A stretch of 42,730 nucleotides of DNA from a virus. This document shows, piece by piece, positions 36,226 to 42,730 of this stretch. The position numbers and the translations under genes were made by a program. The stretch covers positions 20,418 to 63,147 of the IMG/VR virus record IMGVR_UViG_3300030329_001304, one strand, 5' to 3'. The notes beneath the pieces are model-generated. The model was not told where the DNA came from and did no database searches. It worked only from the letters and a program-made list of their open reading frames with translations. Every line of letters starts with the position of its first letter. Within the stretch, counting starts at the first letter, position 1.

Positions 36226-36887
36226 ACTTCCCTCGCATTTACTAGATTGAGTATGTTGTGTTCACATAACTTGACTGCATACTTTTTAAGTTCCTTTTCT
36301 TCGATAGCTGGAAACCTATCCTTTAATAATAAAAATAAATCTATCATTGTAATTGGTTGTCCGTCTTTGTCCTTTAGGAATTCAGCTACCTCTTCTGGTA
36401 TAACCCATCTATATTTTTGTTCCTCACTGTTGGTTAAGTTAGGTCTAAACTTTTCCTCTACAAACATTTCATTGTCAGTTTTCTTTACAATATATCCATT
36501 AGTTTCTCTACCGAACGTAGTTGTAACCTTACCTTTCTCAAATTCAAAAACGAGGTCAGTAGGGTTTATTCCCTCTTCAATAAGCTGAGAGAATATTTTC
36601 TGGCACTCAGTATGAGAAGCGATAGTAAGTGTTAGGTGCTTCACTTCTTTCATTTCACTGATATATATTCCGTAAGTAAATTCATTAATCTTAGGTGTTC
36701 CATTCTTACAGAAGACACATTCTGCTTCTTTTGCCCAACACTTATTGCGTTTCTTTGTAGTAGGATTCCAATGTTTAACTCTATGTATAGGGGCTATAAA
36801 GGCAAACTGTCCCAAAGCTTTCATTGAGTCTAATAACCACACTCTCGAACTTCGGGGCGATTGTATCCAATCTTTGTATTCACTCAT
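36216..36887 (-). CDS. Single-stranded DNA-binding protein with zinc site, putative
   Basis: The product has 223 residues. A Cys cluster (Cys50, Cys57, Cys60 in NKCWAKEAECVFCKNG) is placed inside a beta-rich region like the zinc-containing OB domain of T4 gp32-type SSBs. Strands such as KHLTLTIASHTE, DLVFEFEKGKVTTTFG and NGYIVKK follow. The C-terminal 60 residues (WVIPEEVAEFLKDK, KKYAVKLCEHNILNLV) look like a small helical or winged-helix domain. It sits in the replication block between Hsp20 and the helicase-like gene. The ATG overlaps the Hsp20 stop. The assignment rests on the zinc site and context. Confidence 0.5.
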   Translation of the reverse strand: MSEYKDWIQSPRSSRVWLLDSMKALGQFAFIAPIHRVKHWNPTTKKRNKCWAKEAECVFCKNGTPKINEFTYGIYISEMKEVKHLTLTIASHTECQKIFSQLIEEGINPTDLVFEFEKGKVTTTFGRETNGYIVKKTDNEMFVEEKFRPNLTNSEEQKYRWVIPEEVAEFLKDKDGQPITMIDLFLLLKDRFPAIEEKELKKYAVKLCEHNILNLVNAREVWI

Positions 36888-37246
36888 TCTATTTCTACTT
36901 TCTTAGCTGATGTCTTTTCTTTCTTTTCGATGGTCATATCGAGAATACCATTGACCATAGTTGCTTTGACTGACTCTGGGTCTACTTCATAATTGAATGT
37001 TCTATCCCATGAAAAGTTCTTTCTATCAGACTTAGCGTTGATTGTAACAGTTCTGTTACTAACTTCTATATCAACTTGGTCTTTATCTACTCCAGCTAAC
37101 TCAGCTGTAATAGTTATAGTTCCATTCTCTTCGTTCATTTGAACATCGTTTCTATGTTGGTAACGTGGTGTGTTAGGAACCATCTCAATTTGGTCGAGTA
37201 AGTCCTGCCACATTTCCATCATATCTCTAGTTCTTCTGTCCCACAT
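36884..37246 (-). CDS. Small heat-shock protein, Hsp20/alpha-crystallin family
   Basis: The product has 120 residues. The N-terminal part is short and Met/Trp-rich (WDRRTRDMMEMWQDLLDQIE). The alpha-crystallin domain spans about 35-110 with ITAELAGVDKDQVDIEVSNR, a loop, and the signature VKATMVNGILDMTIEKK. A C-terminal V-E-I that could act as the I-x-I anchor follows. Such ATP-independent holdases form oligomers and keep unfolding proteins soluble. Virus-encoded copies occur in cyanophages and some archaeal viruses and may protect virion or replication proteins. GTGGAGGACT precedes the start, three bases after the next gene upstream. Confidence 0.9.
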   Translation of the reverse strand: MWDRRTRDMMEMWQDLLDQIEMVPNTPRYQHRNDVQMNEENGTITITAELAGVDKDQVDIEVSNRTVTINAKSDRKNFSWDRTFNYEVDPESVKATMVNGILDMTIEKKEKTSAKKVEIE

Positions 37247-39431: not shown

Positions 39432-40037
39432 TTAGGCTTCACTTACTTTCTTAGCTACAGCCATGTATTTTTCTACAGCCATAAGGATAGGTGGTTGTAA
39501 CTCTTTTGGTATATAATCTATCCCATCCATGCCGTTGTCTAAATCTTGATAAAAGATTTCTAAGTATGCACTAAAGTTATCTGTGATGTAGTGATAACCA
39601 TTAGCAACATCTTCATCATAATCTCTTATAAAGTTAATAACTTGAAATGCTCTACCCAATGCTCTGGCGTGTATCTCACAGCGTGGGTGACATCCTAATA
39701 TCTTTGACATCATCATACCAACTGACTCAGCTGAGCCTTTACAGTAATCTAACATAGATACAATGGTGTGCTCTTTCTTTATCATATCTTGATACATACT
39801 TATGTGAAAGTCTGAGAGCCATTCACCTTCGAACTGATACTTGTCACTCACTTCGTAGAATTGTTCTATAACTTCTCTCCAATGTTTGAAATCATGTAGA
39901 GTCTTCTCTCCTTCAACCATCTCATCACATACTCTAAGGTATGCATATAGTTTGTATATATCTTCTTTGATATCATCTGGCCACGCACTCATACACTCAA
40001 AGAATGTAGTGCTGTATTCTTCCATTATCTCTTTCAT
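39432..40037 (-). CDS. Squalene/phytoene synthase-like prenyltransferase
   Basis: The product has 201 residues of the trans-isoprenoid head-to-head synthase family, which joins two prenyl diphosphates (C15 or C20) to squalene or phytoene. The first Asp-rich motif is YAYLRVCDEMVE (Asp38...Glu42, Glu replacing the usual last Asp). The second is FIRDYDEDVANGYHYI (Asp139, Asp141, Asp143), fully acidic. The spacer motif CKGSAESVGMMMSKILG matches the family Y-C-x-x-V-A-x-x-V-G region. Family members are usually 270-300 residues; this one is shorter in the loop after motif I and at the C-terminus, so activity is uncertain. It is translationally coupled to tiny upstream genes (ATGA). Confidence 0.8.
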   Translation of the reverse strand: MKEIMEEYSTTFFECMSAWPDDIKEDIYKLYAYLRVCDEMVEGEKTLHDFKHWREVIEQFYEVSDKYQFEGEWLSDFHISMYQDMIKKEHTIVSMLDYCKGSAESVGMMMSKILGCHPRCEIHARALGRAFQVINFIRDYDEDVANGYHYITDNFSAYLEIFYQDLDNGMDGIDYIPKELQPPILMAVEKYMAVAKKVSEA

Positions 40038-41657: not shown

Positions 41658-41755
41658 TTTTTCTTTGCTCCATACTTACGTGGTCTAATCATAAGTTTCT
41701 TAGTTCGATTCATACCGAACATTTTATCTAACCATACTAATAATTCTCTAATCAT
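41654..41755 (-). CDS. 33-residue basic micro-protein
   Basis: The ORF starts at ATG 41755, overlapping the glycosylase-like stop (ATGA), and ends overlapping the next ATG. The product MIRELLVWLDKMFGMNRTKK begins with an amphipathic helix and ends basic (LMIRPRKYGAKKK). The overlaps on both sides favour translation. The amphipathic N-terminus could touch the membrane. Its function is unknown. Confidence 0.45.
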   Translation of the reverse strand: MIRELLVWLDKMFGMNRTKKLMIRPRKYGAKKK

Positions 41756-42186
41756 TCTTTCTCCGTTGGCCAATAGTATTCATACTCGTTTATGATTGTG
41801 AGGTCCGTTTGTGCATCAGTATCGAAGTGCTGTTTATAAAAGTCGTAATCCTTACGAAGTAGGTTCATTCGATGTGACTTATGCAGTTCCGGATAGCCTA
41901 ACCATTGAGGGTATACTATTGGCCCTTCTATCTCATATAGTTGCATTGTGTTGTTGTATCCACGTGCAACCCACTCTTCTATCATTACGTTAGTGTAATG
42001 TTTCAAAGCGTTTTCATAACCAACCCACATCAAACGTGCAGGGTGGTTGAGCCAACCTTTCTTATCATAGTCTGGACTGAGAGAGTTGATGAGCTGAAGG
42101 CCCTCTACTCTTTGCTTACCGAGACGACGATAGTCAAGGATTTTGGCTGATGTTCTAAAATTTTTTGTTGGTAAAAATGTTTGCAT
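41752..42186 (-). CDS. Pyrimidine-dimer DNA glycosylase-like protein (MSMEG_6728 family)
   Basis: The product has 144 residues. It follows the family closely: an N-terminal MQTFLPTKNFRTSAKILDYR, RLGKQRVEGLQLINSL, the NHPARLMWVGYENALKHY segment, an EWVARGYNN helix and YPQWLGYPELHKSHRMNLLR. These proteins are related to T4 endonuclease V, which cuts at UV pyrimidine dimers. The Arg/Lys-rich start fits that type of active site. The gene is first in the early operon. A UV-repair role would suit a virus of sunlit water, though this is inferred. Confidence 0.8.
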   Translation of the reverse strand: MQTFLPTKNFRTSAKILDYRRLGKQRVEGLQLINSLSPDYDKKGWLNHPARLMWVGYENALKHYTNVMIEEWVARGYNNTMQLYEIEGPIVYPQWLGYPELHKSHRMNLLRKDYDFYKQHFDTDAQTDLTIINEYEYYWPTEKE

Positions 42187-42230: not shown

Positions 42231-42244
42231 TATATAAAGGTTTG
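42231..42244 (-). promoter_or_regulatory. Archaeal BRE/TATA promoter of the first leftward operon
   Basis: On the minus strand, CCAAACCTTTATATAG carries a strong BRE/TATA (TATA at 42231-42238). Transcription near 42208 gives a short leader before ATG 42186. It drives the glycosylase-like gene and the tiny genes down to 40974. Confidence 0.65.
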
Positions 42245-42249
42245 GGTGC

Positions 42250-42606
42250 AACGAAGAGAGAACGGCTTCTCAGTAAGAGTCGTGTAGCTTCGCACATGAA
42301 ACTATCGTGCTCTTTCTTTTCATATACCTACTGATGACTCTAATAAATCTTTCAGCATTCCAAACTCATCTGACATAACTGTCACGATAGATTTACAGGG
42401 GTATACTGAGGTATGCTTGACATATACTCGTCGCCATAATGATTAGGCTAAACGATATATTTGGTTCCTTTGTATTCAGCTATCACCATACCGATAGCTA
42501 CCTCTCTGTTCATACTGTCCTACTACAGTAGCATTACGATTAAATCGGGCTGTGCGTGGCCTGATGAACAAACTGAAATTCAAAATTCAAGTCTTCGTTG
42601 CGATTT
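42250..42606. other. Non-coding or micro-ORF region with inverted repeats
   Basis: No ORF of 30 codons with good support is seen here. It holds minus-strand micro-ORFs, including MNREVAIGMVIAEYKGTKYI (21 residues), MSDEFGMLKDLLESSVGI (18) and one of 17, the last two joined by an ATGA overlap. Inverted repeats include GAGAA-CGGC-TTCTC (42258-42271), AGCTATC-ACCATACC-GATAGCT near 42480 and CTACTACAGTAG near 42520. It might be an origin, a regulatory RNA or a set of leader peptides. Confidence 0.35.
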
Positions 42607-42650
42607 GGCGGATGCTGAGCCGACCGACAGATGACTCAGCACCTGTCGCC
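42607..42650 (-). ncRNA. H-type pseudoknot/structured RNA candidate
   Basis: Read on the minus strand, CGACAG pairs with CTGTCG (stem 1, six bases) and TGCTGAG with CTCAGCA (stem 2, seven bases) in crossing order. The connecting loops have 1, 4 and 5 bases, the order expected for an H-type pseudoknot. Outer GGCG and CGCC can also pair. The element is GC-rich in AT-rich DNA. A TATA-like TTTATAAT near 42686 could start an RNA just ahead of it, directly after the stop of the partial gene at 42651. Confidence 0.45.
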
Positions 42651-42730
42651 TCAACCGAATAGTATAAGCATCACCATCCATATCATTATAAAGAAAGCGA
42701 ATAGCATATACCACTCAGCTTCATTAACAT
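42651..42730 (-). CDS. C-terminal end of a small membrane protein, cut by window edge
   Basis: The frame is open from the right edge to TGA 42651-42653 and encodes VNEAEWYMLFAFFIMIWMVM followed by LILFG. This is a membrane helix directly after an acidic short stretch. The start lies outside the window. It may be a small single-pass membrane protein or the last helix of a larger one. Only 25 residues are visible, so existence is likely but unproven. Confidence 0.4.
   Translation of the reverse strand, partial: VNEAEWYMLFAFFIMIWMVMLILFG

What the first reader, a model, noticed from the sequence alone, without database searches (positions are those of the whole stretch)
42600..42660. H-type pseudoknot candidate at the right end
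Two GC-rich stems of six and seven bases cross in the order and with the loop lengths (1, 4 and 5) expected for an H-type pseudoknot on the minus strand. It starts two bases after the stop codon of the truncated gene and is far more GC-rich than its surroundings. It could be a non-coding RNA, a 3'-end stabiliser, or a recoding/readthrough element.
Basis: partly seen in the sequence, partly recalled or inferred. Interest (0 to 1): 0.7.

Follow-up and report, generated by a model that had tools for sequence, protein, structure and literature searches.

The report
Modular structured RNA in archaeal-type viruses
The supposed pseudoknot is really the constant first hairpin of a previously unrecorded, highly structured non-coding RNA (about 130 to 840 bases) carried by a whole group of tailed viruses, probably of archaea, whose shape is preserved by matched mutations while its inner modules are swapped around.

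Summary
The two stems exist as written, but the H-type pseudoknot reading fails. The minus strand folds into one long hairpin (42607-42650): GGCG/CGCC clamp, 3-nt ACA bulge, 11-bp stem, at least 8 kcal/mol better than the two crossing stems summed. The hairpin is conserved in 23 virus records (22 distinct RNAs): 96.7% of cells paired, 12 of 18 pairs changed on both sides, covariation 0.635 versus 0.194 shuffled. The crossing stem is not conserved and cannot form in relatives with a 14-bp stem and 8-nt loop.

The hairpin is only the 5' domain of a larger RNA. An 8-12 bp stem (42592-42601 with 42248-42257; 9 of 10 pairs change on both sides) closes a multibranched domain ending 3-9 nt before the next gene's TATA box. 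Length is 127-840 nt. Inner modules recur in different orders, one a genuine H-type pseudoknot (42462-42499). There is one copy per record, downstream of a VWA/CobT-like gene. Rfam has no match.

Best reading: a new family of large modular viral ncRNA, comparable in kind to GOLLD/ROOL but unrelated in sequence. Transcription and function are untested.

The parts
42239..42650 (-). whole structured RNA in the window, about 412 nt, 5' end near 42650 (ends inferred from structure, not mapped)
   Evidence: MFE -127.6 kcal/mol, z -4.78 on the minus strand against -1.92 on the plus strand; RNAalifold of the five closest RNAs gives 113 pairs, 24 with both sides changed; longest sense ORF 35 aa
   Evidence: 96.7% of cells paired over 20 distinct sequences, 12/18 pairs with changes on both sides, covariation 0.635 vs 0.194 shuffled and at most 0.147 slid; found without a given structure by RNAalifold
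42644..42646 (-). 3-nt bulge A[C/U/A]A, fixed in position; an A-U pair, a G-C pair and a U.G wobble lie at constant distance (8-10 bp) above it
   Evidence: alignment A3: first and third bulge A invariant, U.G wobble in 18/20
42592..42601 (-). closing stem P3, 5' arm GCAACGAAGA
   Evidence: pairs with 42248-42257; 99.2% paired, 9/10 pairs with both sides changed over 13 distinct sequences, covariation 0.877 vs 0.290 shuffled; found in 21 of 22 RNAs, weakest in L087
42248..42257 (-). closing stem P3, 3' arm TCTTCGTTGC
   Evidence: predicted independently from the single sequence
42574..42590 (-). hairpin H1 region (UUGA..UUUUGAA..UUCA), conserved in the window's subgroup
   Evidence: alignment A1; folded
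42564..42570 (-). stem P4 5' arm UGUUCAU (pairs with 42507-42513); encloses module GGCCACGC...GUAGUAGGAC
   Evidence: inverted repeat I8; CG to UA double change kept in L004 and L011
42507..42513 (-). stem P4 3' arm AUGAACA
42462..42499 (-). genuine H-type pseudoknot module: S1 AGCUAUC/GAUAGCU, S2 UGGU/ACCA
   Evidence: 10 distinct versions: S1 100% paired with 6/6 pairs changed on both sides, S2 95% paired with one double change; coordinates
42433..42449 (-). GCC-UAAUCAUUAU-GGC hairpin module shared with other RNAs in other positions
42360..42401 (-). module CUGUAAAUCUAUCGUGAC...GUCAGAUGA
   Evidence: exact-pattern scan of viral contigs found it only in records of this virus group
42258..42271 (-). 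3' hairpin H2 GAGAAGCCGUUCUC directly before P3
42231..42242 (-). BRE/TATA-like promoter AACCTTTATATA of the next gene, 9 nt after P3
   Evidence: P3-to-TATA distance 3-9 nt in 17 of 18 RNAs checked
41752..42186 (-). downstream gene: pyrimidine-dimer DNA glycosylase (PF03013)
42651..42730 (-). 3' part of a small single-membrane-span ORF (...EAEWYMLFAFFIMIWMVMLILFG*), cut by the end of the record; complete in L003/L006

Best explanation
The feature is the 5' hairpin of a large, modular, structured non-coding RNA that is a fixed component of one group of tailed viruses, probably archaeal. SHOWN: a constant 5' hairpin (clamp, 3-nt bulge, 11-14 bp stem with a fixed U.G wobble), then a closing stem that brackets a multibranched domain of very variable size; internal modules including real H-type pseudoknots; one copy per record, fixed position 3' of a VWA/CobT-like gene; the structured strand is the sense strand of its neighbours. 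INFERRED: it is made from the 3' end of the upstream operon's transcript (or its own promoter), its 5' end lies at hairpin A, its 3' end lies just before the next gene's TATA box, and it acts in trans as a folded RNA or RNP scaffold. In that view hairpin A plus the closing stem is the invariant recognition core, and the exchangeable modules are peripheral folding or docking elements, as in GOLLD/ROOL-type ornate RNAs.
For: Covariation of hairpin A, closing stem and internal pseudoknot, all far above shuffled and slid controls. G.U outnumbers A.C at the helix positions 48 to 6 in hairpin A, 30 to 6 without the fixed wobble column, so the minus strand is the structured one; fold z-scores agree (-4.78 vs -1.92). 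Model R1 finds exactly one strong copy per record in 23 records; every VWA-bearing record of the group whose contig continues past that gene has it. No conserved ORF. RNA end and TATA box in near-constant register. Length 127-840 nt with shared modules in different order. Rfam negative.
Against: No transcript data were available. RNA ends are inferred. Trans action is by analogy only. The archaeal host rests on promoter-like motifs and gene content; no named relative was found. The module search used regular expressions written after seeing the sequences. Closing-stem and pseudoknot alignments were anchored by hand on the arms, although the slid and mismatched-partner controls argue against an artefact. 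L093, the most distant relative, has hairpin A but its closing stem was not resolved.
Confidence: 0.75

Rival explanations
1. A cis-acting untranslated region: the structures stabilise the 3' end of the upstream operon mRNA or control the downstream gene (riboswitch-like leader).
For: Hairpin A often starts within a few nt of the upstream stop codon; always on the strand of its neighbours; the RNA lies between two genes.
Against: The downstream gene has its own TATA-like box just after the RNA, so the RNA is probably not in its 5' UTR. Downstream genes differ (glycosylase in the window, other small ORFs in L002, L024, L081, L088), and upstream the RNA follows the VWA gene, the small membrane ORF or further inserted genes. 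Up to 840 nt of ornate structure is far more than a 3' stabiliser needs.
Confidence: 0.17
2. An H-type pseudoknot at 42600-42660 acting alone (3' stabiliser or recoding element).
For: Both stems are perfect complements; CUGUC/GACAG also possible in L002 and L012.
Against: Nested hairpin preferred by about 8 kcal/mol or more even before any pseudoknot penalty; hairpin pairs covary; the crossing stem is not conserved and is sterically impossible in L007/L008; such patterns arise by chance about 0.2 times per strand; next in-frame stop after four codons.
Confidence: 0.03
3. The structure works as single-stranded DNA (recombination, replication or packaging site) rather than RNA.
For: Covariation alone does not separate RNA from folded DNA; the location is constant within the genomes.
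Against: Strong G.U over A.C bias on one strand, including a U.G pair fixed in 18/20; strand always sense to neighbours; it abuts a promoter-like motif.
Confidence: 0.05

Closest known systems
GOLLD RNA (large ornate RNA of phages and prophages)
   Same: Virus-encoded, hundreds of nt, many helices and pseudoknots, a conserved part plus a much less conserved part, unknown function (PMC12286853)
   Different: GOLLD has a conserved 3' region and often lies near tRNAs (PMC12286853); here the constant part is the 5' hairpin plus the closing stem, no tRNA nearby, no Rfam match
ROOL RNA
   Same: Virus-encoded ornate RNA with multiple pseudoknots (PMC12286853)
   Different: No covariance-model match; here size varies 127-840 nt with shuffled modules; no tRNAs nearby
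OLE and raiA-type large bacterial ncRNAs
   Same: Extensively structured stand-alone RNAs detected by covariation
   Different: Bacterial chromosomal; no Rfam model match here
TIGR arrays (modular guide RNAs in phages, PMC12045711)
   Same: Modular non-coding RNA in viruses
   Different: No tandem guide array seen and no Tas/Nop-type protein noticed among the neighbours examined; modules here are structural, not spacers

Membership tests
H-type pseudoknot (at 42600-42660) | two crossing stems that are the stable or conserved fold | tested here: not met
   nested hairpin preferred and covarying; crossing stem not conserved
H-type pseudoknot (module at 42462-42499) | S1 and S2 crossing, with covariation | tested here: met
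   S1 6/6 pairs double-changed; S2 one double change, 95% paired; S2 support is modest
GOLLD (Rfam) | match to the GOLLD covariance model | tested here: not met
   no match even at E up to 5 on the window and two long relatives
ROOL (Rfam) | match to the ROOL covariance model | tested here: not met
GOLLD/ROOL | association with tRNA islands (frequent, not universal) | tested here: not met
   ARAGORN finds no tRNA in the window or in 15 loci
GOLLD/ROOL | homo-oligomeric RNA-only cage | not testable with these tools
   needs cryo-EM or mass photometry
structured non-coding RNA (general) | covariation above controls | tested here: met
   shuffled and slid controls; no formal R-scape test was available
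structured non-coding RNA (general) | transcription as a discrete RNA | not testable with these tools
   no transcriptome held
Riboswitch/5' leader | lies within the 5' UTR of the regulated gene | tested here: inconclusive
   own TATA-like box between RNA and gene argues against it; start sites not mapped

The most novel reading that the evidence does not exclude
A new class of ornate viral RNA whose architecture is a constant 5' hairpin plus closing stem with freely exchanged peripheral modules, forming an RNP with the adjacent VWA/CobT-like protein and its MoxR-type ATPase in (probably archaeal) tailed viruses.
Probability: 0.2. Interest if true: 0.9.

Novelty: new variant of a known kind. 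Interest (0 to 1): 0.68.

Why it matters
Large ornate RNAs are known from bacteria and their phages (GOLLD, ROOL, OLE) and their functions are mostly open. This family appears to bring the phenomenon to probable archaeal viruses. It also supplies a natural size series from 127 to 840 nt with shared modules. The smallest member (L008) may be a minimal working version, and module swapping between relatives gives a direct way to separate core from periphery by experiment.

Tried and rejected
H-type pseudoknot at the given site: rejected on energy, conservation and geometry. Recoding/readthrough: rejected, next stop after four codons and the upstream gene differs between relatives. Known RNA family: Rfam at gathering and at E up to 5 on the window and on two long relatives, nothing credible. 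tRNA or tmRNA: none. HDV-like, twister, hammerhead, k-turn and group II resemblances were considered from memory and dropped because their conserved elements were not seen. TIGR arrays: no tandem repeats seen, not pursued. Retron-type msr/msd: no reverse transcriptase noticed nearby, not searched for specifically. Cellular copies: none for the VWA protein or the subgroup-2 hairpin pattern in 84,980 genomes. Structure prediction of the VWA protein gave a poor model (pLDDT 54) and was not used. Naming the virus: PolB, terminase, a capsid candidate and VWA searched against named phages gave only distant or no matches. Alignments A4 and A5 had a shifted or mistyped row and were replaced by A6. Two script runs were superseded: one search failed, and anchored L087 and L092 wrongly (corrected).

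Full report
OBSERVATION. The patch is 59% GC against 36.5% for the window. The window is the right end of a 63,147-base virus record, so the upstream ORF is truncated, as stated. A crossing pattern of that size is not rare: 0.225 per strand in simulation, and another such match lies elsewhere in the window.

WHICH FOLD. RNAfold prefers a nested hairpin, -25.5 kcal/mol, z -3.83: clamp GGCG/CGCC, ACA bulge, stem GGUGCUGAGUC/GGCUCAGCAUC. The 6-bp stem would have to break the clamp and reach from the bulge to the loop. Energies of the two crossing stems alone are -7.4 and -8.5. In L007 and L008 the stem has 14 bp and the loop 8 nt, so the crossing pairing cannot form there.

HOMOLOGUES. A pattern scan, the downstream glycosylase, the PolB and the upstream VWA protein brought in relatives. 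A covariance model of the hairpin (R1) then found one strong match per record in 23 records, including viruses whose VWA proteins are only 38-50% identical to that of L002. On 12 sequences the hairpin shows 98.1% paired cells and 8 double-changed pairs; on 20 sequences 96.7% and 12 of 18, covariation 0.635 against 0.194 for shuffles and at most 0.147 for slid versions. Constant features are the 3-nt bulge A-N-A and a U.G wobble at a fixed distance above it. RNAalifold finds the same hairpin without being told.

THE LARGER RNA. In 21 of 22 distinct RNAs the sequence a few nt 3' of the hairpin (36 nt in L081) pairs with the sequence just before the next gene's TATA-like box (L087 has only a 6-bp core plus further pairs beyond a mismatch). 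Over 13 distinct versions 99.2% of cells pair and 9 of 10 pairs change on both sides. The distance from that stem to the TATA-like motif is 3-9 nt in 17 of 18 RNAs. The RNA region, measured to the TATA box, ranges from 127 (L008) to 840 nt (L090). In the window the RNA has MFE -127.6, z -4.78, against -1.92 for the other strand, and the single-sequence fold already shows hairpin A and the closing stem. G.U pairs exceed A.C 48 to 6 in the hairpin, which assigns the structure to the minus strand. No long or conserved ORF is present.

MODULES. Short conserved modules recur in the variable domain in different order and number: for example CAAGGAGUAAG...GAUAAACAAGGA lies early in L081 and L090 and late in L084, L086 and L089. 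One module is a true H-type pseudoknot, S1 with UGG(U) in its loop and a downstream AACCA; ten versions give 98% paired cells and a covariation score of 0.684 against 0.133 shuffled. In the window it lies at 42462-42499. Exact scans for two other modules hit only this virus group.

CONTEXT. Upstream is a VWA/CobT-like protein (PF00092, PF11775) that carries an HEKLH motif, preceded by an AAA ATPase (MoxR-like by inspection) where checked, often with a ~30-aa membrane ORF between VWA and RNA. Downstream genes vary. Records without the RNA also lack the VWA gene or end before it; the one exception, L094, is a short contig with only a partial and distant VWA match. Neither the VWA family nor the subgroup-2 hairpin pattern was found in 84,980 cellular species genomes. 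Host: promoter-like AARCTTTATATA motifs exceed expectation (6 vs 2.2) and gene content suggests archaea, but no named relative exists in the phage collection; this remains an inference.

INTERPRETATION. The best-supported reading is a viral, stand-alone, modular structured RNA. Shown: structure, strand, conservation, synteny, copy number. Inferred: transcription, ends, trans action. It works most like the ornate phage RNAs GOLLD and ROOL (PMC12286853), but is not a member of either: no model match and no tRNA neighbourhood. A cis-UTR role is the main rival. An RNP with the neighbouring VWA protein is an attractive but untested possibility.

Noticed in passing
window 42462-42499 (minus strand): A genuine, covarying H-type pseudoknot lies about 120 nt into the same RNA; related copies occur at other positions in relatives.
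   Followed up: yes
L008:4832-4947: Natural minimal version of the RNA (127 nt including the TATA box): hairpin A, closing stem and two small hairpins only.
   Followed up: partly
L002:1148-3253 and relatives: VWA/CobT-like protein with an HEKLH (HExxH-like) motif, next to a MoxR-like ATPase; weak PDB match to NorD. Function in the virus unknown; AlphaFold model poor.
   Followed up: partly
window 39432-40037 (-): Squalene/phytoene synthase family gene (PF00494, E 9e-25) in a virus genome.
   Followed up: no
window 36884-37246 (-): HSP20-type small heat shock protein gene in the virus.
   Followed up: no
L103:9445-19483 (left part of the same record): Two giant proteins (1633 and 1714 aa); the second is made of many short glycine-rich repeats that look like trimeric-adhesin head repeats, possibly receptor-binding fibres.
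   Followed up: no
hairpin A loops of L087, L089, L092, L093: Apical loop carries UUUACCUCC or UUUUCCUCC, which resembles an anti-Shine-Dalgarno sequence; absent from the window version.
   Followed up: no
L006, L009, L024, L088: An identical 22-mer GAACGTCGCATAGCGATGAAAG sits at different positions in divergent RNAs, suggesting recent module exchange.
   Followed up: partly
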